DNA of 64,000 nucleotides from an uncultured bacterium (GTDB lineage Bacteria > Patescibacteriota > Gracilibacteria > Absconditabacterales > Absconditicoccaceae), in NCBI GenBank assembly GCA_947169045.1, contig CAMVOC010000007.1:1-64000 (forward strand), read 5' to 3'. Positions within the stretch are counted from its first letter, which is position 1. Each line of letters starts with the position of its first letter. Positions 6,939-54,141 of the stretch are shown piece by piece. Position numbers and translations under genes: made by a program. The notes beneath the pieces are model-generated. The model did no database searches. It was given only the letters and a program-made list of their open reading frames with translations, and was not told the DNA's origin.

Positions 6939-9272
6939 TTAGGAGTTTTTGAAGCAGCGGATAGGAAGTCCTCTTCCACGGTATGTGGTATTGGTACTAA
7001 ATGACGTTTCGCTGAATTTTTTGTAGTAAGCTTCGCTAGTATTCGTATATGGGCTGGAGGATCGATAATATCCATCTTTATCCCTACCATCCTCGTAATA
7101 ATTCGCAAAATTATATTCACGATAACTGGTCTTTGGTAAGCGAAGGATACTTCGTGTATCATATGCTGTAGCCCCTTCTAGTAGCTGATTTCGCTCTAGA
7201 ATAGATGGAATATGGTATCCATCAGGACAAGGTCCTTGACGATCTTCTTGTGTTCCAGTTCCATTTGCAGAAGTCGTATCTCCTAATCCTCATCGTAGAT
7301 TCTTATTATTTGAGCTGTCCCATTGAGATGCTCTGATAAATGTTGCACTAGAAAATGGATTATTTGGTCAAAATGTAGAAGCATCTACTGCGGTTGTAGA
7401 ATTAGGCGTATATGTCGCCACTGACACGTCTCACATAGGATAATTATTTCCTCGCTGATAATAATATCCAAAACTCGTAGTTGGATTCGTTAAATTAAAT
7501 ACCTCTGTTGCTCCAAGATTACATGCCTGAATCGTAATCCCATTATACGTGATATCTGGAGCCCCATCACAAGGAATAGTAGGTTGTGACTCATAGGTAT
7601 TTAAGAAACAACGAACTGGCATCCCATCTCCTGCACTCACATTTTGAGCCCCATATATAGCATTATTAACAAAAATGATTCCATAAGCTGCGGTATATCT
7701 AGGTGAGGATGATAGATATCTTCCCTGTGAGAGACTTGTCAGTTTTGCATCACTTGATCCACGAAAACCCATTCTCGGTAAATAAAGGATTCCTTCAAGG
7801 ATACTAGCACCATCTGTCGAATTTGGGATACCTAGAAGCAATTGATTTCGTTCTAAAGCGGATGGAACATGGTATCCGCTAGGACAAGGGCCTTGACGAT
7901 CCTCTCGCGTCCCAGCTCCATTACCTGTTAGTGTATCTCCAGATCCTCATCGTAAATTTTTATTATTTGAACTGTCCCACTGAGATGCTTTGATAAATGT
8001 TGCACTAGAAAATGGATTATTTGGTCAAAAACCAGCTGCGTTTACTTTTGTTGAAGAATTCGGAGTATAAGTCGTTACTGACCCATTACCCATAGGATAA
8101 TTATTTCCTCGCTGATAATAGTTACCGTACATGGTAGCAGATTTTGGGTGAAAGCTAGCAAACACTTCAGTTGCTCCTACATTACATGCCTGAATCGTAA
8201 ATCCATTATACTGAATATCAGGAGCCGATTCACATGGAGTAAATGGAGAAGTATATTCGTTTTTGAAGCATCTCACTGGCATTCCGTATCCACGATACTG
8301 ATTAGCACCTGTACTTATAGTAGATGTAGTAAAATTTAAACTATAAGCATAATTATTATAGGGACTTGAAGCGCTATAATATCCATTTGTTCATAATTTC
8401 TGTAAAGATGGAGTAGAATAATTACGCCAACCTGCTAAAGGCAAAAAGAGTGTGTTTGTAAGAAATGCCACCCCAGTCGCTGAGCTTGGGATTCCGTAGA
8501 GCAATTCACTTCGTTCGTACACAGAGGGGACATGATATCCGCTAGGACAAGGCCCTTGACGATCCTCTCGTGTTCCAGCTCCATTGGCTGTAGTGGTATC
8601 TCCTGTTCCACCCCGCAGGTTTTTATTATTTGAGCTATCCCATGAATTTTTTTTAATAAAGGTATCACTAGAATATGGATTACTTGGTCAATAAGCAGAC
8701 GCATTGACCGCAGTACTGTTGTTTGGTGTATAAGTAGTCACCGTACCATCTCCCATAGGGTAATTATTTCCTCGCTGATAATAATATCCGTAACTCGCTA
8801 CTCCAGTACCTACCTCCGTCGCTCCGAGGTTACATGCCATAATGGTATATCCATTGTAGGTGATATCTTGCGCTCTTCAGCAAGGCATTCCAGGTTCTGG
8901 CTGGAAAGATTGTGGCTGAGGACAGTCAGAATAGTCACTCATGGTACAAAATTCTACAGGCTCACTACACATTAAGGTTACCTGTACACTTCCACTCGTC
9001 CAAGAGCTCGGAGTATAAGTCGCCGTACAGATTGGTGCGGTCCAGTCTGCTGACTGAGGAGTTGCTTTAAGTCCAAGGATTTCTTCATCGTCATCGCCTT
9101 CCAATTCAATAGAAAAATTCCCTACAATCGTACTTACTTTTTCTCCAATCTCCCCTAAAAACACCTTTTCCGTAAAATGTAAAAAAGACTGATTGGTACT
9201 TACGTAAAAAACTCCTCATGCAAAGGAGCAAAAGAACAGTAAGAAACAGAGATTTTTTACAATATTTGGCAT
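6939..9272 (-). CDS. secreted protein with three FISUMP-type (Fib_succ_major) repeats
   Basis: 777 aa. The signal peptide MPNIVKNLCFLLFFCSFAGG contains one UGA Gly. After a short N-terminal region come three repeats of about 210 aa (starting near residues 133, 350 and 570). Each opens with YNG-TI-ACN-GATEV, continues with YYQRGNNYPM and GPCPSGYH-PS-ER, and closes with MPVRCFKN or similar. This pattern matches the Fibrobacter major paralogous domain family, often found in surface or secreted proteins of host-attached bacteria. Function is not established. The stop at 6939 is 17 nt from the end of the convergent gene. Confidence 0.85.
6942..8873 (-). repeat. three tandem ~650-bp coding repeats
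   Basis: Units at about 8258-8873, 7598-8225 and 6942-7563, alike at both DNA and protein level. They encode the FISUMP-type domains. The near identity of stretches such as GNNYPM and SSNNKNLR suggests recent duplication or gene conversion. Confidence 0.8.
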
Positions 9273-9277
9273 ATCAG

Positions 9278-9293
9278 GGGGAGACCTCCTAAC
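9278..9293 (-). promoter_or_regulatory. strong Shine-Dalgarno of the repeat-protein gene
   Basis: TTAGGAGGT on the minus strand, about 12 nt before ATG 9272. It stands out because most starts in the window lack such a site and instead have a T-rich leader. Confidence 0.6.
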
Positions 9294-9370
9294 AGAATAA
9301 ACACTATTTTTATTAGTAATTACTATTTTCTTTTTAATTGCAAGAGAAAATTACTATTTTATAAAAAAAC

Positions 9371-9441
9371 AGGACCTGAGGGAATCGAACCCCCGACGCG
9401 GAGCTTTGGAGACTCCCGCTCTACCCCTGAGCTAAGGTCCT
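9371..9441 (-). tRNA. tRNA-Trp (CCA)
   Basis: Acceptor AGGACCT/AGGTCCT, anticodon stem GGAGT/GCTCC around loop CTCCAAA, anticodon CCA. The 3' CCA end is not encoded. With CCA it reads only UGG, as expected where UGA belongs to Gly. Confidence 0.93.
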
Positions 9442-9462
9442 GCGTATTGCATCAGGTATCTT

Positions 9463-9490
9463 CTTATACACAAGTGCAAGAGAAATGCAA
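9463..9490 (-). promoter_or_regulatory. promoter of tRNA-Trp
   Basis: TTGCAT (9490-9485), 16-bp spacer, TATAAG (9468-9463) on the minus strand, about 20 bp ahead of the tRNA. Confidence 0.6.
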
Positions 9491-9498
9491 GGAAAAAT

Positions 9499-9527
9499 TT
9501 GCAAAATTAAGCCTTTTTGTGTACTAT
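9499..9527 (+). promoter_or_regulatory. promoter of the AMP phosphorylase gene
   Basis: TTGCAA (9499-9504), 17-bp spacer, TACTAT (9522-9527). The leader contains CAGCTTTTTATTTCTT shortly before the start codon. Confidence 0.55.
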
Positions 9528-9596
9528 TAATAAAGTGCTAGTAGATTGATACTAGGAAAACTCTTTCAGCTTTTTATTTCTTTTTTTCTTTAGGAG

Positions 9597-11105
9597 ATGC
9601 AAGAAATTTTTTCTGCAAAAATAGTGATCTTTGATATTCGTAATGCTGGGGATTTAACAGTCATTCTCAATACTCAGCAAGCTTCTCAATATGGGATTCG
9701 TGATGGAGATAAAATTTCTCTGGTTCGTGGTGGAGAAGAATATATTGTCGATGTTGCGCTTTCTTCGGATTATATCCAGGCGAATCAGATTGGAGTAACG
9801 CGTGATTTTCTCAATCAATGTCACGTAGAAGAGGGAGATAACGTGCTGATTACCTTTACTAAGTCTAATCCTCTTTCTATGCTCGCTATCAGGAAAAAAA
9901 TGCTGGGGCATAAAATTACGAAAGAAGAGGTCAATGCTATCGTCGAAGATATTCAGAATAATAAGCTTTCTGATTTAGTGCTTGCATACTATACTTCTAC
10001 CAGTTTCTTTTACAAATCTGACCCTCAAGAACTGGCTTATACTACCAAAGCTACAGCTTTTACTGGTGATATGTATCGTTTCCCTGGTATCGTAGCGAGT
10101 AAATACAGTATCGGTGGGATTCCATGAAACGAAACGTCTATGATTATCGTTCCTATTTTGGCTTCCTTAGGAATCACGATACCAAAATCCTTTTCCAAAG
10201 CGATTACTTCTCCTGCTGCTACGGGAGAATGCGTTAATGTTTTGATGGATATTAGTTTTAAAAAAGCTGATATTATCCGTATTATCGATAAAACCGGAGC
10301 ATGTCTCGTCCGAAATCAAGGACTTAACCTAGCTCCTGCAAACGATAGAATTATGAAAGTGTCTTCTCCTCTAGGTATGGAGCCATATGCAAGGATGATT
10401 TCGTCCATTATGGCAAAGAACTATGCTATGGGAATCAGTCACTGTCTCATCGAAATCCCTGTTGGATCAACGGCAAAAGTTACCAATATGGCAAGCGCTA
10501 AGAGAATTGCGAGTCATTTTAAGAGTATTGCAAAATATCTCGGTATGAAGGTTGGTGTCGAGATTATCAGGGCTGATCAACCTGTGGGAAGAGCTATTGG
10601 TGCAAATTTACAGGCTAGAGACGCGCTTAGAATTCTGCAAAATCATCCAGATCAATCAGAAGAACTCGCAAGTAAAGCCATTTTTCTCGCTTCTAAATTA
10701 CTCGTTTTGTGCGGGAAAGTCCCTACCATGAGGAAAGCCGAAGCGCTCGTAAGAAAGCAGCTTACTACCGGTGAAGCTTGGAAAAAAATGTCTGACATTA
10801 TTCGTGCTCAAAATGGAAAAAATCCTGGAATAAAAGCTGACGATATTCAGCTTGGCGACGTACAAGAAGAGATTCTCGCTCCTAAGTCCGCTCTCATTAC
10901 GGATATTGATATGAGTTATCTCAATACCATCGTTCGTACGCTTGGAGCTCCAGCAGACTACACTGCAGGAATTTATTTGCATAAAAAAGTAGGTAATAAA
11001 GTGGAGAAAGGAGAAGTCCTCTACACGCTTTACTCTAGTTCAAAGCATAAATTACAAAGGGCTAAAGAGATGCTCGCAAATTTGGATTTTTATACGTACA
11101 AATAG
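9597..11105 (+). CDS. deoA: AMP phosphorylase (archaeal-type thymidine phosphorylase family)
   Basis: 502 aa with one in-frame TGA (10125). The extra N-terminal domain of about 85 aa and total length match archaeal AMP phosphorylase rather than ordinary thymidine phosphorylase (about 440 aa). The motif ITSPAATGEC (about 203-212) is the family phosphate/nucleoside loop; GSTAKV and PVGRAIGANLQARDA follow. The enzyme converts AMP and phosphate to ribose-1,5-bisphosphate and adenine. In CPR and archaea this feeds R15P isomerase and form II/III or III RuBisCO; neither partner is in the window. Confidence 0.88.
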
Positions 11106-20246: not shown

Positions 20247-22181
20247 ATGTTTGTAAATATTTTTATTGACACACAAAAAGATAAAATGGCTATCAATGAA
20301 AGACACTCAGAAAGACTAGTCGAACAGAAAATGTGATTTGATTTAGGTAGTAATGAATTTTGATGGGTATTCGCACAGTGAGAACATGCAAATGCAAGAA
20401 TAGACAGCGCTCTTACAAATGCATGATGAAAACCAGATTTGTGTGAGATTAACGATTATACAAAATGATGAAAATGAAAAGCAAAGCCAGAATATATAAT
20501 AACATTTAAAGGAAACGATAATACAATAATTGTAGTTGAATGTAAAAGCGATCCTAAAATGCATTGCAGCGTAAATTATAATCAACCAAAAAAATATGCA
20601 GTTGATTGAGTTTTATATTATGCTAAATATTTAAAAGAATATTACAATGTCATAGCTGTAGCTGTTAGTTGAACAAAGACACAATTATTTAGGTCTAGTA
20701 TGTTTTATCGACCAAGATGACAAGAATCATACCAAGAATATACAAATGCACAAAATGTTCTATTATCTGCAAACAACTATTTAGAATTAATAAACGGGAA
20801 AGAACTAAGAGCTACTTATAAATTACAAGATGTAAAGGAACTTGCTATTATGATGCATGAATCTTTGAGAACTGTAAAAATGACTGAAAAATTGAAGCCA
20901 TTATGTATAGCGTGAATACTTATAGCGTTACAAGATAAAAGTTTTAGTAATAGCTATAAAGATATTAAAGATTTTGACACACTTTTATTAAGTTGTGAAT
21001 CAGCTATAGATAGAGTTTTACATGGTTGAGAAATCCCAGAGAAAAAAATAAAAGAAATTAAAACAGCATTTTGACAAATTGATTGAGTAATACAACTAAA
21101 GAAAAAAGATTTAAGTGAAGATGGTTCATTAAGGCACTACATTAATATTCTAGAGATGAATATAAAGCCAATGATGTGTCATATATGAAATACAATTGAT
21201 GCATTATGAGTTTTTTATCATGAGTTTATTACTTATTCTTCTTGAGATTGAAATACCTTATGAATTGTTCTAACACCTCAACACCTTACAGAATTTATGG
21301 CTGAGCTAATCAACATAAAAAAAGATGATAAAGTACTTGATATTTGCTGTGGCTCATGAGCATTCCTAGTAACTGCTATGGGAATAATGTTTAAAAATGC
21401 AACACCTAATGAAATAGAATATATTAGAAAAAACAATCTTTACTGAATAGAACAGGATTCTGATATTCATACTTTAGCCTTAGCTAACATGATAGTTAGA
21501 CAAGATGGGAAGTCAAACATTATCCATTGAGATTGTTTTGATAAAGAGGCTTATTCAAAATTACAGGACTTAACTGACACTAATTGAAAAAGAATATCAA
21601 TCAATAAGTGACTTCTTAATCCTCCATATTCTCAAAAAGATCATACTGAACTTGAATTTTTAGAACAAGAATTAATGCTTGTAGCACCTGGATGAGAAGT
21701 TGCAATAGTATGTCCAATGTCTTGTGCAATAGGAACAAAATTTAAAGAAGAAAGAAGAAGACTTATGGAGAAGCACACTCTTAAAGCAGTATTTTCGATG
21801 CCCGATGATATTTTTTATTGAAATAAAGCCTCTACAAATGTTTGTGTAATGGTACGAAAAGCTCATGAACCTCATGATTCAGAAGTCCCTACGTTTTTCT
21901 GATATTATAAAGATGATGGTTTCGTAAAGAAAAAGAAATTATGAAGAATAGATTACTATGATAAGTGGGAGTGAATAAAAAAAGAATGGATAAATTTTTA
22001 CAAAAAATGAGATGTAAAGGACTGATTAACAGCTAAAGCTTGCGTTACATGCAGTGATGAATGGTTATGTGAAGCATATATGGAAACGGACTATTCTCAA
22101 TTATCCGAAAAAGACTTTCAAAATACGGTTAATAACTATCTATCATATTTAGTTAAGAAATGAGATATTTATGAAAATTAA
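20247..22181 (+). CDS. fused restriction nuclease - N6-adenine methylase (BcgI-like type IIB/IIG RM subunit)
   Basis: 644 aa with 33 UGA and only about 11 GGN glycine codons. The N-terminal 180 aa hold a nuclease-type core, ARIDSAL..KPDL then TIIVVECKSD (about 95-102). After a helical linker comes the gamma-class methylase: VLDICCGSGAFLVTAM (about 363) and LLNPPYSQ (about 455). A fused nuclease-methylase followed by an S subunit is the BcgI arrangement, in which one complex both methylates and cuts on both sides of a bipartite site. ATG 20247 is near the promoter; ATG 20286 (MAINERHSE) is an alternative start. Confidence 0.82.
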
Positions 22182-23139
22182 TACAATAAACCGAAAATAT
22201 TTCTCTTTGGGTGAATTATTTGGATACTCAACATCTAATGATGATTATTTATCATCTTATAACAATTGAGATGTTGAATATGTTTCTTCTAGTGCTGAAA
22301 ATAATGGAGTTTCGAGCATGATTGATGCTATTCCTTCTCAAAAATGAAACACACTTACAATTGCTAGAAATTGAAGTGTTTGAACTACATTTTATCATAA
22401 AAATTCATATTGTGCATCATCTGATGATATAAGAATACTTACACCAAAATTTAATATGAGCTCTTATATATGATTATTTTTATCCACAATTATAAATAAA
22501 GAATCTTTTAGATTTAGTTATGGCAGGAAATTAACAAAAGATAAAGTACTTAATATGAAAATTAAGCTTCCAGCAGATGAATCTTGAGATCCAGACCGAG
22601 ATTATATGGAAAATTATATTAAATCATTACATCATAAACCAATTACAACAAAAATTAAATCATGAAAATATGAATTAAATATTTGAGAATGGAAAGAATT
22701 TAGAATTTGAGATATTTTTACACAAGATAGATGAAAAGAATCAGCTCCAAACCAAAATTTAGATTGAGAGACTCCAATTGTAAATGAAACAGATAATAAT
22801 AATTGAATAACAAGGAATGTTGAGCCAACAAAAATATTCAAATGAAATGCTATAACTATTTCTATTAATGTATGATATAATGTTTTTTATCAACCATATG
22901 ATTTTTGTGCTTCTGTAAATATAGCTATACTAAAGTCAAAATATCTAAATAAATATAATTGATTATTTATTGTTTCGTTAATTAAACATAACAATAAAAG
23001 ATATAGTTATTGATATAAAACGAGCAAAGATAAAATAAATGATATGATTATAAAACTTCCTGTTGATAAGAATTGAAACCCAGACCGAGAATTTATGGAA
23101 AATTATATAAAAAATTTACCATATTGAGATAGAATCTAA
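22171..23139 (+). CDS. specificity subunit of the BcgI-like R-M system
   Basis: 322 aa, ATG overlapping the methylase stop by 11 nt (translational coupling). Two target-recognition halves: each has a motif like NTLTIARNGSVG or AITISINVGYN, ends with a YGRKLTKDKV or YGYKTSKDKI box, and closes with LP-D-GDPDRDYMENYIK or its second copy. This duplicated layout is typical of type IIB S subunits. It supplies DNA recognition to the fused nuclease-methylase. Confidence 0.85.
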
Positions 23140-23178: not shown

Positions 23179-23568
23179 TATCTGATAATTAAACTTTGAA
23201 TAAATTTCTTTATGATTTTCTTTCAGTAATTTCTGCCACCAAACCGTTTCATTTCATCATTGAATATCCGTTTTGGTATAAAGTAATAAAATCTGAACTT
23301 CTTTTTTGTCTTCATCTACATAAACTATAATTCTGTTTCATGAAGTTTTGGGAGATTCGTTGGATCATGCTATCTTAAATTCATATTTAGCTATATAACA
23401 ATTATTTGATTTATGAATTCTTTCAGCTTTTGAAGTTTTGATAAACATATCAATACGAGTTAGCATTTCATTAATCGCTTTCATCGTTTTGTCCCAAGTA
23501 TTTTTATACCTTTTGCTAAAAGGTTTTATGAAGTGTCTTTCTGCATAAATGGAGTGCAGATATAGCAC
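23176..23568 (-). CDS. RelE/YoeB-like toxin-type protein
   Basis: 130 aa from GTG 23568 to TAA 23176. The segment PFSKRYKNTWDKTMKAI resembles the first helices of RelE-type RNases. GNRIIVYVDEDKKEVQ with LLLYTKTDI and a late NETVWWQ resemble the sheet and C-terminal part. Several glycines are UGA. No antitoxin gene is adjacent. Its first 14 codons overlap, in another frame, the end of the truncated SDR gene, so a shorter form starting at an internal ATG is possible. Confidence 0.55.
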
Positions 23569-23912
23569 ATACTCACCACGGCTTTGATATTCAAATCAAT
23601 CATATTCAGAGAATCTTCAAGCGGAATTTCATCACTAGCTCAGAATTTTCCATATCAGGCATTATTCACTAGATATCTGATTCTACACTTAGTTTCAGTC
23701 AGCTTTTTGGAAAATTTGATAATCTCGTCATGAACTGAAAGATCTATCGTATAAGGGACTATTTTATCTCAGTACTGAGTTTTGAGTTCATTTAATTTAT
23801 CTTTACTTCTAGCTAGGACTCGGATTTGATCCAAATCTTTTTCTTGGATAAGGTTATCTACAAAGATTTTTCATAATCCTGAACTAGCTCATGTAACGAT
23901 AGCAATTTTCAT
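23526..23912 (-). pseudogene. truncated short-chain dehydrogenase (SDR)
   Basis: 128 aa; intact SDRs have about 250. It keeps the NAD(P) loop TGASSGLGK (residues 7-15) and the LVNNAGYG motif, but ends before the YxxxK active site. The frame meets TAA where the toxin gene begins, so the 3' half appears to have been replaced or deleted. Three UGA glycines in the motifs show that the code reassignment predates the loss. Confidence 0.75.
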
Positions 23913-23939: not shown

Positions 23940-25385
23940 TTATTTCAATAATCACTTTAAATTCTGAATATGACTTTTAATCTCAACATCAGATTTTTCT
24001 ATATCTTCCAAAATCTCTTTTGGATCTCTTAAAATTTCTTCCTTATTCTTATTAGGATTTTTAGCTGATAAGTCGTAATCTTTAATATCTCATACTTTTA
24101 CAATCCATGAATTTTCTCATAACTCTCTAGAATTATAACAATCAATCATTCATTGCAATTCTTCAAAAGTTATAGGTTTATTTTTCGTGAGTTTACGACC
24201 TAAATCTACTTCATAATAATAGATTTCTTCAGTTGGTTTAGTCTTTTCAAAAAAGATAACATTCGTTTTTACTCATGCGTAAGGTAAGAAAATTCCTGAA
24301 GGTAAACTAACAATCGTATGGAGATTATAATTTTCCAAAAGTTCTCTTTTTACTCACTGAAAAGCATTTGAAGTATTGAACAATACTCATTCTGGAACGA
24401 TTATCGCAGCCCTACCTCATGATTTCAGTTTTTTCATGAAATGCTCGAGGAATAATATTTCAGTAGCATTAGATTTTATCGGAAAGTTAGCCTGAATTTC
24501 TTCTTTTTCTTTACCTCAAAATGGAGGATTTGCAAGAATAATATTGAATCAATCCTTTTCTTGAAAGTCTCTAATATTATCAATCAATGTATTTTTCTTA
24601 TTAATATTTGGATTTTCTACTCCATGAAGAATCATATTCATCACTCCCATAATGTAAGCAATAGGAGTTTTTTCATTTCACCATAAAGCATCATGATTCA
24701 ACCAATTTAAATCAGCCGTAGTTTTAGCTTTTTGACGGAGATGATTATAAGCTTCAATTAAGAATCCACAAGAACCAGCAGCTCAATCGTAAATAGTTTC
24801 TCAGATTTTTGGATCTATACATTCTACCATAGCTTTAATAACTGCTCTTGGGGTATAAAATTCTCCACTATTTCATCAATCATTTCCCATTCATTGAAGT
24901 AAATCTTCATAAACTTTTGAAAGTTCAAAAAGGTCTTCACTGGATTGGAAATTCATTCAATCAATAATATCAATTACTTCTCTCAAAGTATTTCAGTTTT
25001 CTATTCTATTTGAAATAAAGTGAAATATCTCTCAAATTTTATATTTCATACTATGATAATCTGTAGAATTATCACGGAATTTATCGAGATATGGAAAGAG
25101 TTTTAGATTTACAAATTCTTTCAAATCATCTCAAACCATAGCAGATAATCTATCAATTTTTCCATTTTTCTTTGGCGCTGCCCAAGTAGACCATTCATAT
25201 TCTGGAGAAATTAATTTATGATAAGTTTTTCAGTTCAAACTAGCTTCTAATTCTTGAGCTTTTTCATAATCATCAAAGAATTTCAGAAAAAGAATCCATG
25301 AAATCTGTTCAGTATATTGCATAGCTCATGAGATTCCGTCATCTCTACGGAGAATGTCTGTAATACGATTAATTTCTGCTTTCAT
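23940..25385 (-). CDS. hsdM: type I restriction-modification methylase
   Basis: 481 aa with many UGA glycines. The N-terminal HsdM helical domain (GAMQYTEQISWILFLKFFDD) is followed by GEFYTPRAVIKAMV, the AdoMet motif DGAAGSCGFL (about 198) and the catalytic ANPPFGGKE (about 285). It methylates adenine within the site recognised by HsdS. Last intact R-M gene of the operon R - PIN - S - unknown - M. Confidence 0.92.
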
Positions 25386-25395
25386 TAAATAATAA

Positions 25396-26091
25396 TTATT
25401 TACTTAAAACACGATCATCTATTTTATCTAAGAATTTATAGATAATAGGGATATATTTTTCAAAATCTAATCTATCAATTACTTCATACATAACATATTT
25501 TTTATCTTGTTCATTTATTCAAGGGTATAATAATCAGATAATTATATCTATATAAGCCTTTTTTAATTCAATTAAATTATCTGATAAATATTCATTAAAT
25601 AATTCTCTTTCTTTTTTTAGTTTATCTCTTTTATTTTCTCACTTATTGTCTATATAATCATCAATACATTCTTTAAAAGAATCTCCATAAGCATCTAATT
25701 TTATTTTTCATTTGTTAATTACATCTACAAAATCTCAATTCTTCATATAATTTTCCAAATGAAAATTAATAGGGCTATTTGAATCATTCATCATTTTTTC
25801 AAGAGTTTCAACTGATAATTCTCAATTATCTAAATCTTTATCTTCAATTCCAAGTAATATTTTTCATTCATCACTTTTTATTCAGCCATTAACTGACTGT
25901 AATTCTTGCATAAACTCTTTAAAATATTCAAATATATCTGAATATAAACTTATCATTCTTGGATTATCTTCCTTTTCTTCCTGTTTCTTTTTTTCTTCTC
26001 TCTTTTTTTCAAACCCTTTATAAACTTTTTCAACACATAATTGAATAAAAGTCTGTATAAATGTTTGAAAAATTAAATTCTCATCTGCCAT
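25396..26091 (-). CDS. unknown protein between hsdS and hsdM, 231 aa
   Basis: ATG 26091 overlaps the hsdS stop (TAATG), and the stop is 10 nt before hsdM, so it is an integral operon member. Mostly helical and highly charged, with a Lys/Glu-rich stretch (KGFEKKREEKKKQEEKED) near residues 30-47. No membrane segment and no recognised motif. The larger upstream ATG (26109) would start inside hsdS. Its fixed place in an R-M operon suggests an accessory role. Confidence 0.6.
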
Positions 26092-27302
26092 TACTCTACT
26101 AATTCTCATTTAAAAGCTTTATCTAATACACTCTTTTTCAATTCTTCCAAGTTATCAAGTTGAGATTGATATTTTAACTTTAACTCTTTCACTTCTTGAG
26201 AGACTTGGTCTAAATGTTCAACGATTTTTTCTTGCTCTGAAAGTGGTGGAACTGGAATAGTGACTGTTTTTATATTTTCAAGATGCAAGTTTGGAACTCC
26301 TGCTCATTTTAAACTTTTATCAAATTGTCTTTTACAAATCGGACTGTTAACTATTCTGTGTAAAAATCTTGGTGTAATTATTTTCTGATTTGGTCTTAAA
26401 ACAGCAAGAGTTACATAAATATCAAAAATTCTATCATCTTCAACGATCGCAGCAACTCAAGTTGTTCAGTTTTTAGCTAACAAAACATCATCTTTTTGTG
26501 GTGCTATTCTTGCATATAACTCTTCATGTAAACTTTGTGGAATATGCTTTATTCATCATTCTCGATCTATATATTCTTTTGTTACATCTTTTGAAGAAAT
26601 GAAAGGAATTCACTCTTTTTCTCCACAATATGTAGGAGTTTGGTGTGTTCAATCTGTAATTTTTTGTAAACAAACATCTTGTAAAGTCTTCATCCCCCAA
26701 TTTCCATGAAAAGCTTGATTCAAAGCTGACTTCCAAAGTTCGTCCGTATTATCCAAGTTCTTCTGAATTTCTGATTTAGTCTGGTCAAGTTCAGCAAAAA
26801 TCTGGTCAAGTTTAGCGACTATGGCTTTTTGAGTTTCAAGCGGTGGAAGTGGAATTTCTATATTTTGTAATCTTGATATTGCTAATTTTGGCATTGCGAC
26901 TGCTCTTGAAGCTAATCAAGCCTGATTTCCAAAAGATTTTGAATTTGTAAAATATAAAATATATCTATTATCTATTTCATATTTTCAATTATATACTAAT
27001 CTTACAGCATTTTCTGTTAAATTTGCTCAATTCAATTCAGCTGGAATTATTCAAGTTTTTCAAATCGTTCAGGCAATGCTTACATATAAATCTTTATCTG
27101 TTATAATATATTTTGATATTTGCTCATAAATCTCCTTTGTAATATATTTCACAGTTGAAATATCTACTGTTCAATTATCTCAAAAATCGGAAACTCTAAT
27201 ATATGGATATTCCGTTTTTTTATCTTGAACAAAATTTCATTTTGGTAATCTCTTTCATGATTTTATATTTGCTATTTCTCAAAGTTTTACTGTTGGTCGC
27301 AT
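26091..27302 (-). CDS. hsdS: type I restriction-modification specificity subunit
   Basis: 403 aa with two target-recognition domains. Each is followed by a conserved helix: IEIPLPPLETQKAIVAKLDQ (about 136-155) and the second copy VTIPVPPLSEQEKIVEHLDQ (about 343-362). The C-terminus, LDKAFKGELVE, is complete only when TGA is read as Gly. It gives site specificity to HsdM/HsdR. The start overlaps the stop of the PIN gene (TAATG). Confidence 0.92.
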
Positions 27303-29179
27303 TATTTTTCCTTTCTCTTGTTAAAAATCTCTTGTGTTTTCTTATTCACAAACCTAGTTACGGTTTTGTTATATAAATTTTCAAATGTTTTCTTAACTGG
27401 TTTTACAAAATTAATTCATAATAAAGATGCTGTTGTAAAAACAATAGTTATTTGCTGTGAATATTTTCAAAGAAAATCAAAAATTCATAACTTTGACAAT
27501 ATATAACATACTAAAATTACTACTATTAATATTGATAGTTTTACTGTCCGAAGTAAAAAATTCGCCTTTTTCTTTGCTCCTATTTCTATATTTTCTTTTG
27601 CTACTGATATTTGAGATTCAGCATCTTCTTGTTTCTTTTTTATTGTCTGATTTGCTAGATATAGTCATTCAATTTTTCTTTTTGCACTATTTTTCTCTCA
27701 ATGAATTTTTTGAATAGATTCTTCTGACAAAATTTTTGAAAAATCTAAATTTCATGTTTTTTCAACTTCTTTTTCTAACTCCAATAAACTAGATTTTGTA
27801 CTCTCCATGGCCAATAAAGCAGCACAATCTTCATGTGATATTTCTTTTGACTCAACTTTTCTTCCTAATTCTCACAAAAATGATTCTCGCAAATTATTCG
27901 AAATAACATGTTTTTTCATATTTCAATTTAAAAATTGTCGTATTTCCGATATATTTACAATATTTGGATTTTTTAACCACAAATATGTTGCGATAGATTC
28001 TATGTGTATTATTTCTGGGACTGTTCAATCTTGATGTAATGTTAAATTCCAAGAACTAAAATGATTATCTAATGTTAAAAATATTATTTTAGATTTATCT
28101 ATTGATTTTGAGTAAATTGAATGCAAAGAATATCTCTGTTTTTTTATAAATATTTGCATAAGTACATCGTGCTCAATTATTTTTTGTGACGATTTTTTCT
28201 TGTATTGTGATAATGATTGTGTTTTTTCTGAGAATGAACGGTCTTCACTTAAAGAGTCTTTAGATGTAATATAATTAATTTCAATATCATTTTTTTCCAT
28301 AAAAGATTCAATATTTTCAATAATAATATTAATATCTGACTTTGATTTATTTTTCAGTTTCATATTATAATAAATATGATCAACAGGATAATTACTGAAA
28401 TAATTTTCTGGTTTATAACCATCTAATAGCTTATTTAACTCATTTAAGGTCAAAGATGACACATACAATTTTGCATTCATTCACTTTAATTTTTCTACAA
28501 TTTCTCTTGTCATAATATTAACAGATTCCTCATGATATCACAAAAGACTTATTATAATATTTGTATCCAAATAGACCTCTAATCCGTTAAAATTATCAAA
28601 TATTCAATCAATATCTCTCTGAACCAATAACTTTGAAAGGAATCATGTATAAAGTAGTCATATAATTTTATTATATTTATCTATATTTTTTCTTTTTGTA
28701 TCAGAAAGATATTTAAAAAATTTATTTAATATATTTTCACTTGACTCTAACTCCAATCACTCATCTACCGAAAAATCTACTTTAGTTATATCAGATTTCA
28801 AAAACATTTCTACAATATCTTTTAAAGATGCCGTAATTCCTAGTTCTTTTAAATCATTTTCTATATCATCAAATCATTCATTTTCATAATTTTTAGTGCT
28901 TTCGATTCTATAATTTTCCCCATTTTCAGTTAATATATATACCTCAAACTCTTTATAGTCTATATATCATTTTTTTCTTAAATTTTTTAATAAACTTTTT
29001 CAAACTTCATATGGTACGTTAATTCAAGTTTCATGCCCCATTTTTTCTAATATTTTCTTCGTATTATTAGTTTTATTGTTAGAAAATAATAAAAGCATAT
29101 CAGAATATATATCCATTATATCTTTTTTTGATTTAGAGAAATGTGACTCTAAGAATGCATATGCTACTTTATAATTCAT
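27302..29179 (-). CDS. membrane-anchored PIN-domain protein in the type I R-M operon
   Basis: 625 aa. An N-terminal winged-helix-like part (FEVYILTENGENYRI, about 75-90) precedes a PIN nuclease core: VYLDTNIIISLLG (about 199-211), an acidic TLNELNKLLDG (about 245), and FLTLDNHFSSW (about 365-378) with the later acidic position. A helical, coiled region follows, and two membrane segments near the C-terminus (about 537-590, ILIVVILVCYI and TIVFTTASLLG). PIN domains are metal-dependent RNases. It lies between hsdR (21 nt) and hsdS (TAATG overlap), an arrangement that recalls PrrC-type guard nucleases in R-M operons, although the fold differs. Confidence 0.72.
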
Positions 29180-29200
29180 CTCTTCACAATATTTTAATTA

Positions 29201-31555
29201 TTAAATCTTAAACAACTCACCTTGTACATCTTTCCACATATCCGTCAAAACTTCTGCTCATCATAGTTCTCTCGTAAAATCCATAATGCTCCATCTATTC
29301 TTTGAGAATAACTTTATCAAATCTCATAATTTTGACTGAACTATCTCTGTACTTCCATGCTCTGCATAATAACGAAGCAAATATTCTACGAAATTTCTCG
29401 CTGTTAAATTCTGGATAGATTCCACCGTTCATTGTCCCAATACATGTTGAGCTCTTTCTTCTTTAGTTTTCATTTCTTCTCCAAATGAAAGGTGTGTCAA
29501 AATATCAAAAAGGTCTGAATCTGGTGCACTAAACATTCTTTTCAAAACTTCAAAATGTTCTTTATCCAATCAAATTTTTTCTAATTCTTTAAGTAAATCT
29601 TCTCTGGTTTTAGGGTCTGACCACAATTCTCTGAGTTGATTTTCATCTGCATAAAGTTCTGGTAATTTTCCTACCAACATTTCCAAATATTCTTTGGAAC
29701 CCATTGGCTTTCCTGTTCAGTCAATATATCTCACATCTACATCTATAATTTTTAGTTCTCTTGCATTATTTAATCTGACCACCAATTTTGGTTTAACTCA
29801 TTCACTCTCATCATCAGTCTTTCAACCACTAGTTTTAGTAGGTTTATTAGTCTGACCATCATCATCGTATCATCATTGACCTTCATCTACTTCTTCATCC
29901 ATGTTTGGTCCATCCCAATCTTCATCATAAAATAATTCTGAAGCTCAAGTAAAGTCTATAATCGTGAAATAATCTTTTCCATCAAAAACTCTGGTTCATC
30001 TTCCTATAATCTGTTTAAATTCTGTCATACTTGTGATATTACGACAAAGCACGATATTTCTCACATTTCTCGCATCTACTCAAGTAGTTAGCATTTGAGA
30101 AGAAGTTACGATAGTTGGAATCGTTTTATCATTATCTTGGAATCTCTCTAAATACATTCTTCAGATTTCTCATTCATTACTGGTAATTCTGACACAGTAA
30201 TCATTATCTTTCACCTGTTTAAATTCATTGATTGCATCTCTCATTCCTGCCGCATGTTCTTGGTCCACACAGAAAACGATCGTTTTATCATCTTTACGGA
30301 TTTGTTTTAAGATCTCTTGTGCTACTAACTTTCTCCTTTCTGGAACTACGATTTCTCTATCAAAATCTCATAACGAATAAAAATTCTTTTGCACTTCTCC
30401 TCTCACCACTGTAACATCGCTATCGATGACTAATTCATCAAGGTTTGTCCTAATTCTTTTGACTTTATAAGGGGTTAAAAATCCGTCATTGATTCATTCT
30501 TTCAAGGAGTATTCATAAACGGGATTCCCAAAATATCGGTAGGTATTGTTATTATCTTGTCTTTTTGGAGTAGCCGTCATTCATAATTGAACTGCACTAT
30601 TGAAATATTTTAGGATCTCTCATCGGTTTCCATCTTGTTTTGCTCATCATCTATGACATTCATCTATAATAACCAAATCAAAAAAATCTGGATCATATTG
30701 TTTGTAATATTCTGTGAACTGTGTTTCAGCTGTTTCATCTGTGATTTCATCTTCATCACTTCATGAAATAATCGCTTGATATATCGCAAAGAAAACATTT
30801 CCATTGATTGGTACTTGTCATAATGCTTTCTTGATTTCTGTTCCCCTAATCCATTTACAATCTTTCTCAATCGGATTGAAAGTATTGATTGCCTGTTTTA
30901 TCAAGATATTTCTGTCTGCTAAAAAGAGAATACGAGGTCTGCGGTTTGCTCCTTCTTTATTCCATTTCGCTTGAAGTAATTTATATACTATTTGAAATGC
31001 TACATAAGTTTTTCAAGTTCCTGTCGCCATCGTTAGAAGTATTCTTTGCTTTCATTTTGCTATTGCTGATAATACTCTTTGAATAGCTAAATCCTGATAA
31101 TAACGAGGTTTTTTATTACTATCCACATAATAAGGAATACCTAAAATCTGTTGTCTTAATACAGCAGATTCATCAGTATAACGTTCATATAATTCTTCTG
31201 GAGACGGATATTTATCTATATATTTTCACGTTCATTCTTGCATATCCCATTCATAAATTTCATGTCAGTTTGAAGTATATAACCATCTTACTCCTAAACT
31301 TTTTCCATATCATTTTACTTGTTCCAGTCATTCCGTTGGTGGTAAATCTTCTTTTTTCGCTTCAATTATCGCTAAATTCAGTCCATAATCTTTCAATAAG
31401 TAATCAATGAATTTTGGTTTTCATCTTTTCCCTCCTGGTAAAATTCTTCCATCAGTAAAAGAGTATTCTCTTTCAATCTGAGATTCTTTTCGTCCTTGCT
31501 CATGTAGAGCAGGATCTATAAGTTTAACTCTTGTATCAGATTCTGAGTATCACAT
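29201..31555 (-). CDS. hsdR: type I restriction endonuclease motor subunit
   Basis: 784 aa. The N-terminal nuclease has LAIIEAKKEDLPP (about 57-69). The SF2 helicase motor has LTMATGTGKTYVAFQ (about 172-186), VIIDEGHR (about 297), MTATPKR, and IGRGTRVFDGKDYF; most motif glycines are UGA. It translocates and cuts DNA lacking HsdM methylation. A stretch rich in Asp/Gly (near 540-560) is low complexity. ATG 31555 has UGA as codon 2. Confidence 0.92.
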
Positions 31556-54067: not shown

Positions 54068-54141
54068 AGCGGATAACGGGACTTGAACCCGTACGAGCAG
54101 AGCTGAAGTCTGCTATGCTACACCAACTACATCATATCCGC
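54068..54141 (-). tRNA. tRNA-Gly (UCA), decoder of UGA
   Basis: Acceptor GCGGATA/TATCCGC with U73, anticodon stem GCAGA/TCTGC, loop CTTCAGC: the anticodon is UCA (54104-54106). G1:C72, C2:G71, U73 and C35 are glycine identity elements. Normal 7-bp acceptor and short variable loop exclude tRNA-Sec, and the lack of G73 argues against Trp. It explains the in-frame TGA codons throughout the window. Confidence 0.93.

What the first reader, a model, noticed from the sequence alone, without database searches (positions are those of the whole stretch)
23940..31555. Type I R-M operon with a membrane-anchored PIN-domain protein and an unknown protein built in
Order is hsdR, PIN protein, hsdS, 231-aa unknown, hsdM, with TAATG overlaps at PIN/hsdS and hsdS/unknown. 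The PIN protein has a winged-helix-like N-terminus, a PIN core and two C-terminal membrane helices. R-M operons that carry an RNase (PrrC) guard against phages that disable restriction. A PIN RNase tethered to the membrane in this role would be a new variant.
Basis: partly seen in the sequence, partly recalled or inferred. Interest (0 to 1): 0.75.

Follow-up and report, generated by a model that had tools for sequence, protein, structure and literature searches.

The report
Membrane-tethered PIN nuclease in restriction operon
A tiny bacterium with a changed genetic code carries a DNA-restriction operon whose two internal slots hold exchangeable suspected anti-phage genes, here a probable membrane-tethered RNA-cutting protein from a rare unnamed family that elsewhere travels alone on plasmids and prophages.

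Summary
Read with TGA = Gly, the minus strand encodes hsdR, a 625-aa PIN protein, hsdS, a 231/237-aa unknown and hsdM, with the stated TAATG overlaps. The PIN protein has a PadR-like winged helix, a PIN core with its acidic residues, a long helix and a C-terminal hydrophobic hairpin (weak model).

Relatives with this layout occur in Klebsiella, Pantoea, Enterococcus, Sporosarcina, Hymenobacter, Arthrobacter, E. coli P2-like prophages and an Acidimicrobiales genome. Of 13 loci inspected (one a fragment, one doubtful), only the window has type I R-M genes in the stretch held. So, unlike PrrC, the protein does not need HsdR/M/S beside it.

New: in genomes of the same class the scaffold R-[slot 1]-S-[slot 2]-M is kept while slot genes differ: BRO-N, OLD-like + DUF3800, NYN + KAP, AbiEii, Fic. 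Six of six such operons have genes in slot 1, five in slot 2.

Best reading: a self-contained abortive-infection-type RNase cassette captured into a restriction operon. Comparable Campylobacter rlo genes are known; this protein family was not found described in the library searched. Function untested. New variant of a known kind.

The parts
29201..31555 (-). hsdR, 784 aa, EcoAI/FtnUII-family type I restriction subunit
   Evidence: NF046051 818 bits against cut-off 550; ResIII, EcoEI_R_C in Pfam; no internal TAA/TAG
27302..29179 (-). slot 1: 625-aa wHTH-PIN-long helix-2TM protein (P0001), suspected membrane-anchored RNase
   Evidence: PIN residues D205/E247/D338 identical in 8 of 8 aligned members, 371 D/N; PF01850 below threshold E=0.012; low-confidence model matches PadR-like winged helices (about residues 14-115, Z 9-11) and VapC2 3zvk_C (200-394, Z 9.2, rmsd 3.7, 116 aligned); hydrophobic segments 548-566 and 577-595
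26091..27302 (-). hsdS, 403 aa, two target-recognition domains; TAATG overlap with the PIN gene
   Evidence: Methylase_S 1.8e-40, two stretches; junction
25396..26109 (-). slot 2: 231-aa (ATG 26091) or 237-aa (ATG 26109) unknown, mostly helical by low-confidence model (P0002)
   Evidence: no accepted Pfam/PADLOC/NCBIfam match; model pLDDT 42.8; besides itself only two weak partial matches (E 0.0037, 0.0076) in 379 phylum genomes and one at E 9 in 72,556 plasmids
23940..25385 (-). hsdM, 481 aa type I methyltransferase
   Evidence: N6_Mtase 3e-61, HsdM_N 7.1e-11; 75% identical to G134 hsdM
54068..54141 (-). tRNA with TCA anticodon (called SeC by ARAGORN), probably the Gly tRNA that reads TGA
   Evidence: role inferred from the code test

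Best explanation
The locus is an intact-looking EcoAI-type type I R-M operon with two internal accessory slots, filled here by a wHTH-PIN-long helix-2TM protein (slot 1) and a helical unknown (slot 2). The PIN protein belongs to a rare, unnamed mobile family and is most likely a self-contained anti-phage effector: held latent at the membrane, it is set free during infection (for instance through its winged helix, membrane disturbance, or a phage product) and cuts RNA through its PIN site, stopping growth so that phages that got past restriction do not spread. Shown by sequence: operon, conserved PIN residues, shared layout of the relatives, sparse distribution largely on mobile elements, different slot genes in related operons. 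Inferred: membrane insertion, RNase activity, latency, trigger, defence role. Not shown: any contact with HsdR/M/S.
For: Operon and overlaps. D205, E247, D338 are among the 13 columns invariant in the 8-member alignment. PadR-like winged helix and VapC-like PIN recovered from a three-sequence model. C-terminal hydrophobic segments in 7 of 8 aligned members; the eighth (L021) ends early with an IS16 transposase gene next to it, and another E. faecium copy (L084) and the three P2-prophage copies have them. Relatives sit in P2-like prophages, in one E. coli genome between tail-fibre-assembly and sheath genes, which PMC3573123 calls moron position 2 (passages); on a Hymenobacter plasmid divergent from an annotated methyltransferase-helicase pair and on a Sporosarcina plasmid near a CBASS-like cluster, a recombinase gene lying between. 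Same-scaffold operons of relatives carry BRO-N, OLD-like, AbiEii, Fic, NYN and KAP genes in the slots.
Against: No activity data. PIN is below Pfam's threshold in P0001; profile comparison with a PIN_3 toxin put the first two acidic residues in register but was not significant (E 0.12), and with a second PIN-annotated protein gave nothing. The structure model is poor (mean pLDDT 42.6) and Foldseek gave no match at E <= 0.001, its top rows being O-methyltransferases. P0001 is distant from the other members: as query E 1.6e-6 to 0.24 at database size 1e8, as target up to 4.9. Pantoea, Arthrobacter, Duffyella, Klebsiella (3-kb flanks) and Acidimicrobiales loci have no recognisable defence genes beside them, the Arthrobacter neighbours being annotated only as hypothetical; Enterococcus copies lie among IS elements and drug-resistance genes. 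L018 and L078 give identical figures and are probably one prophage lineage.
Confidence: 0.6

Rival explanations
1. PrrC-like guard: the PIN-TM protein is kept silent by the Hsd complex of the same operon and is released when a phage anti-restriction protein disables it, then cuts tRNA or mRNA.
For: Cotranscription-like arrangement with a TAATG overlap to hsdS; PrrC precedent inside a type I locus and the suicide-coupling hypothesis (passages of PMC3506569; PMC12707154); related operons put other suspected effectors in the same slots; antitoxin genes were not recognised there, though unnamed slot genes could be such.
Against: Relatives are found without HsdR, HsdS or HsdM in the 6-21-kb stretches held (loci), so the family is tolerated without adjacent Hsd genes; Hsd proteins encoded elsewhere in those genomes are not excluded. 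The same-genus operon has different genes. No recognised domain in P0001 points to Hsd binding.
Confidence: 0.2
2. Passenger cassette: the slots are simply neutral or recombination-prone landing sites of a mobile R-M operon, and PIN-TM and the unknown have no joint function with it beyond being inherited together.
For: Different genes in each relative, 93% identical HsdR over 630 aa in another genus of the family (G090) suggesting recent transfer of the operon, rare and scattered family (1 of 49, 1 of 145 genomes).
Against: Of the slot genes with an accepted Pfam match most are conflict-type genes (Fic, AbiEii, OLD-like, NYN, KAP, BRO-N), and tight overlaps argue for coexpression.
Confidence: 0.25
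3. Split toxin-antitoxin: PIN-TM is the toxin and the 231-aa slot-2 protein its antitoxin, kept apart by hsdS.
For: Both are inside one operon; in G034 slot 2 holds an AbiEii toxin gene beside a small upstream gene.
Against: No homologue of P0002 below E 9 in 72,556 plasmids although 12 of them hold P0003 or its relatives, and only two weak partial matches besides itself in 379 phylum genomes.
Confidence: 0.07

Closest known systems
PrrC anticodon nuclease in EcoprrI (type IC)
   Same: An RNase-type effector gene embedded in a type I R-M operon
   Different: PrrC has an ABC-ATPase plus ACNase domain and is silenced by the Hsd complex (PMC2610378 and PMC12707154 passages); P0001 has wHTH, PIN, long helix and TM hairpin, no ATPase match, and relatives outside R-M operons
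rlo genes of Campylobacter jejuni hsd loci (rloA, rloB, RloC)
   Same: Variable genes inside hsd loci; strain M1 has rloA and rloB numbered between hsdR and hsdS (PMC2928727 passages); RloC was linked to type I or III R-M loci in only 8 of 72 cases (PMC2610378 passages)
   Different: RloC is a PrrC-like, Rad50-like tRNase; no rlo gene sequence was compared with P0001 here
DefensePredictor DS-3 (one-protein PIN defence system) and DS-5
   Same: PIN RNase essential for phage defence; DS-3 has no antitoxin and may be auto-inhibited (PMC13092281 passages)
PIN-GNAT-EVE proteins near type I R-M systems
   Same: PIN domain proteins frequently close to HsdR/M/S operons (PMC7641849 passages)
   Different: Different architecture: no GNAT or EVE domain match in P0001
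Phd/PIN toxin-antitoxin pair in the EcoAI-type operon of Methylomagnum plasmid pRS11DPr4
   Same: A PIN gene inside a type I operon (M-S-Phd-PIN-R)
   Different: Small 151-aa PIN_3 protein with an adjacent annotated antitoxin, not the large hairpin-bearing protein

Membership tests
Type I R-M, EcoAI/FtnUII-type | HsdR, HsdM, HsdS subunits with family HMM matches and uninterrupted frames | tested here: met
PIN domain nucleases | Acidic active-site residues (D, E, D, D/N) conserved in order (motif recalled) | tested here: met
   D205, E247, D338 in 8 of 8 members, 371 D or N
PIN domain nucleases | Curated PIN HMM above cut-off | tested here: not met
   PF01850 16.6 bits vs 23.6 in P0001; PIN_3 matched 2 of 8 members at E <= 0.1, best 3.4e-4
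PIN domain nucleases | PIN fold | tested here: inconclusive
   VapC2 3zvk_C Z 9.2, rmsd 3.7 over 116 residues, but model pLDDT 42.6
PrrC (R-M-coupled anticodon nuclease) | ABC-ATPase domain | tested here: not met
   no ATPase match in Pfam, PADLOC or NCBIfam for P0001
PrrC (R-M-coupled anticodon nuclease) | R-E-H ACNase triad | not tested
   no alignment with PrrC was made
PrrC (R-M-coupled anticodon nuclease) | Latency through the Hsd complex | not testable with these tools
   needs experiment; relatives without adjacent hsd genes argue against it
VapBC-type toxin | Small PIN toxin with adjacent antitoxin gene | tested here: not met
   625 aa; neighbours are hsdR and hsdS
Membrane-anchored wHTH-PIN family (this report) | wHTH, PIN, long helix, C-terminal hydrophobic hairpin along the whole length | tested here: met
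   closest relative L027 E 9e-11 over about 210 residues
Known anti-phage systems in PADLOC-DB 2.0.0 | Match of P0001 or four relatives to a listed system | tested here: not met
   no match for P0001; only weak, partial matches for two of four relatives, best E 0.0031

The most novel reading that the evidence does not exclude
Type I R-M operons of these code-25 bacteria are platforms with two dedicated ports: effectors plugged into slot 1 and slot 2 (here a membrane-tethered PIN RNase) are held in check by the shared Hsd complex and released when phages inhibit restriction, so that one sensor serves many interchangeable killers.
Probability: 0.13. Interest if true: 0.8.

Novelty: new variant of a known kind. 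Interest (0 to 1): 0.5.

Why it matters
It points to an unnamed family of PIN proteins with a predicted membrane hairpin, spread over five phyla (the window's own, recalled from its code, plus Pseudomonadota, Actinomycetota, Bacillota and Bacteroidota) on plasmids, P2-like prophages and chromosomes, with members in E. coli that can be tested at once. It also gives a natural series (six R-S-M operons, same scaffold, different slot genes) to test whether restriction enzymes act as sensors for exchangeable suicide effectors, a hypothesis in print since 2012 with PrrC as its well-studied case (PMC3506569, passages).

Tried and rejected
Direct homology searches with P0001 failed at first: plasmids E <= 0.01 none, phages E <= 0.1 none, IMG/VR none, class and phylum genomes only itself plus weak matches (of the nine weak ones only L002 was opened: an ABC-type protein by reading its ORF). 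The family was reached through one tblastn row at E = 6 (H41), accepted only because its reading frame showed the same layout and its own relatives then matched across species and P0001.

PIN_3 toxin of L013 and the PIN-annotated protein of L011 versus the family profile: not significant. Solved-structure sequence searches gave one chance row each (E 0.68 and 0.41). PHROGs: best E 0.019, nothing convincing. The model of P0002 is too poor to use. Duffyella L083 is a doubtful member: E 2e-4 from the Hymenobacter query, no significant BLASTP match to P0001, third acidic residue not kept in the alignment, though it has a C-terminal hydrophobic pair. G243, G493 and G782 partial matches were checked: none of the longest ORFs there matched the family at E <= 1, and L030 holds a 144-aa PIN-like ORF by eye; they are not counted. 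The first whole-genome call was a throw-away pattern to learn the genome handle. No claim of kinship with Campylobacter rlo genes is made: no rlo sequence was compared. Structure-alignment rows are a second look at Foldseek's own matches; absence of a family there means nothing.

Literature: no paper describing this protein family was seen in the listings of searches of the open-licence library; only passages of nine papers were read. Two papers wanted (PMC5499597, PubMed 40409266) are not held.

Full report
What is there. The window lies in a 0.87-Mb genome in 13 contigs that reads TGA as glycine: 19 of 32 TGA codons in hsdR and 13 of 22 in hsdM face Gly in standard-code relatives, none faces Trp, and a TCA-anticodon tRNA is present at 54068-54141. 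This fits code 25 (Absconditabacteria/Gracilibacteria; group name recalled). With that code the minus strand from 31555 to 23940 holds hsdR (784 aa), a 625-aa protein, hsdS (403), a 231- or 237-aa protein and hsdM (481), with gaps of 21 and 10 bases and two TAATG overlaps. HsdR is EcoAI/FtnUII family. The stated observation is right in gene order, coordinates and overlaps, with the addition of the changed code.

The 625-aa protein. Pfam finds PIN only below threshold. Relatives make the case: in the eight-member alignment A9 only 13 columns are invariant and three of them are D205, E247 and D338, the PIN acidic residues, while position 371 is D here and N in the seven others. A model from three sequences is poor (mean pLDDT 42.6), yet against 1000 Foldseek-selected chains it matches PadR-like winged helices over about residues 14-115 (Z 9-11; for example 4zzd, Z 10.7, rmsd 2.0 over 93) and VapC2 from Rickettsia (3zvk_C, Z 9.2, rmsd 3.7, 116 residues, model 200-394). 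Foldseek itself had no match at E <= 0.001 and ranked O-methyltransferases first. A long helix (486-563 in the model, running into the first hydrophobic segment) and a second, weaker hydrophobic segment end the protein. So winged helix, PIN, long helix, hydrophobic hairpin is a reasonable architecture; membrane insertion and nuclease activity are inferred.

Relatives and their settings. A weak tblastn row led to a 655-aa protein on a Klebsiella plasmid. With its relatives it is in 12 of 72,556 plasmid records: Enterococcus 6, and one each of Klebsiella, Pantoea, Arthrobacter, Sporosarcina, Hymenobacter and Listeria (a fragment). DNA matches lie in 2 of 5,426 E. coli genomes, and others in an IMG/VR contig that reads as P2-like and an Acidimicrobiales genome. 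Phage records gave none; a sample of 296 genomes of the Acidimicrobiales genome's phylum gave only that genome plus two partial matches. P0001 is a distant member: as query E 1.6e-6 to 0.24 against seven others at database size 1e8, as target up to 4.9; 9e-11 in the single comparison with the Acidimicrobiales protein. I looked at the neighbours of 13 loci: the window, L017, L018 (refetched as L031), L019, L020, L021/L084, L022, L023, L024 (a fragment), L027, L078, L079 and the doubtful L083; of six E. faecium records two were opened. L018 and L078 give identical figures and are probably one prophage lineage. tblastn with the window's and the Salinivibrio HsdR, HsdS and HsdM found none of them in the 14 relatives' stretches of 6-21 kb at E <= 0.01 and all of them in 3 of 3 control stretches, so of the 13 loci only the window is inside a type I R-M operon as far as the stretches reach. 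Hymenobacter's gene stands opposite an annotated methyltransferase-helicase pair; Sporosarcina's lies near a nucleotidyltransferase/ThiF/JAB/SAVED cluster, that is a CBASS-like operon, with a recombinase gene between (label recalled). In E. coli FDAARGOS_1337 it lies between the tail-fibre-assembly and sheath genes of a P2-like prophage, the position that PMC3573123 calls moron position 2 (passages); in MEI7BO1-21 it lies, with one small gene, between an Ogr/Delta-like gene and gene D. P2-like phages are known carriers of anti-phage genes (PMC9122126, passages; the hotspot described there lies beside cos, not at these positions). Klebsiella, Pantoea, Arthrobacter, Duffyella and Acidimicrobiales loci show no recognisable defence genes, and Enterococcus copies lie among IS elements and resistance genes.

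The operon as a platform. HsdR relatives were found in 21 of 145 sampled genomes of the class at E <= 1e-30. I fetched stretches from 15 of these; left out were the window's own genome and the five with the weakest best matches (G091, G142, G114, G107, G081). In 9 of the 15, R, S and M are all visible; in 3 M lies outside the stretch; in 3 a contig end cuts the operon. Five of the 9, all code-25 genomes, have the window's order R..S..M. With the window that makes six: all six have one to four other genes between R and S, five have one or two between S and M. Pfam names for these genes: G134 (same genus, hsdM 75% identical, hsdR broken into two frames) BRO-N in slot 1, an unnamed 277-aa gene in slot 2; G034 an unnamed 731-aa gene, a KAP NTPase and an unnamed 165-aa gene, then an unnamed 194-aa gene and AbiEii; G024 DUF3800 and an OLD-like AAA-TOPRIM protein, no slot-2 gene; G135 four genes, one of them AAA_21 and three without accepted name, then Fic; G071 an NYN nuclease (PIN-like fold recalled) and a KAP NTPase, then a gene with a VTT match below cut-off and an unnamed gene. 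The other 4 of 9 have other orders (G005 M-S-x-R, G128 R-x-M-x-S, G014 R-x-M-S, G120 R-M-S), three of them with internal accessory genes and G120 without. ORFs were called by ATG starts of 90 aa or more with overlap removal, so small or non-ATG genes can be missed.

Mechanism. The most economical reading is that slot genes are exchangeable second-layer defence cassettes. For P0001, relatives living without adjacent hsd genes suggest that it can be kept silent by itself, by its winged helix, membrane position or long helix, rather than by Hsd proteins. An RNase that stops translation when infection disturbs its sensor is then the likely action. That it reports on this restriction enzyme, as PrrC does, is possible and is favoured by cotranscription-like spacing, but nothing here tests it; I put it at 0.2. 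A neutral-passenger reading (0.25) and a split toxin-antitoxin reading (0.07) remain.

Comparison with what is known. Genes inside hsd loci are known: rloA and rloB in Campylobacter jejuni M1, numbered between hsdR and hsdS (PMC2928727, passages), RloC inside such loci but only 8 of 72 linked to type I or III R-M (PMC2610378, passages), and PrrC (PMC12707154, passages). Coupling of R-M with suicide genes was proposed in 2012, naming HEPN, Sir2, ParB and REase-fold domains for R-M systems (PMC3506569, passages). PIN proteins near type I systems are known in another architecture, PIN-GNAT-EVE (PMC7641849, passages), and a small Phd/PIN pair sits inside an EcoAI-type operon of Methylomagnum. A one-protein PIN defence system, DS-3, has been validated against phage (PMC13092281, passages); whether it is related could not be tested. 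What appears new is the wHTH-PIN-long helix-2TM family itself, not matched as a family in PADLOC-DB 2.0.0 (5 members scanned), NCBIfam (P0001 only) or Pfam (8 members), its presence in a restriction operon, and the two-slot series in code-25 bacteria.

Verdict. The finding is real and of moderate interest: a new variant of a known kind.

Noticed in passing
window 20247-23139 (+): A second R-M locus, a type IIG-like methylase/nuclease (644 aa) and a specificity subunit (322 aa), lies convergent to the hsd operon about 0.8 kb away, so the region is a small defence island.
   Followed up: partly
window 23526-23912 (-): A short-chain dehydrogenase ORF of 128 aa matches only the first 126 of 195 positions of adh_short and is overlapped by another small ORF: probably a truncated gene at the edge of the island.
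   Followed up: no
window 54068-54141 (-): tRNA called SeC (anticodon TCA) that probably is the glycine tRNA reading TGA.
   Followed up: partly
L063 5373-8178 (G071): In the same slot a genome of the same family carries an NYN nuclease next to a KAP NTPase, a possible parallel of a PIN-like nuclease in this slot.
   Followed up: partly
L058 5579-6412 (G134): The slot-2 protein of the same-genus operon has an R-x4-H stretch (RSFMEH) that recalls HEPN RNases; Pfam finds nothing (motif recalled).
   Followed up: no
L058 783-3237 (G134): hsdR of the same-genus operon is read as two overlapping ORFs, so it is frame-broken or misassembled there.
   Followed up: no
L071 1-1892 (G090): A genome of another genus in the family has HsdR 93% identical over 630 aa, cut by the contig end; neither P0001 nor a close hsdM was found in that assembly, suggesting recent transfer of the operon.
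   Followed up: partly
L020 7986-10004 (Arthrobacter plasmid): The deposited annotation holds only the C-terminal part of the PIN-TM gene (9210-10004); the open frame starts at 7986 with TTG.
   Followed up: no
L011 and L012: EcoAI-type operons of Salinivibrio and Shewanella plasmids have an AAA ATPase between hsdR and hsdM; Salinivibrio also has an XRE/PIN-annotated pair just before hsdR.
   Followed up: partly
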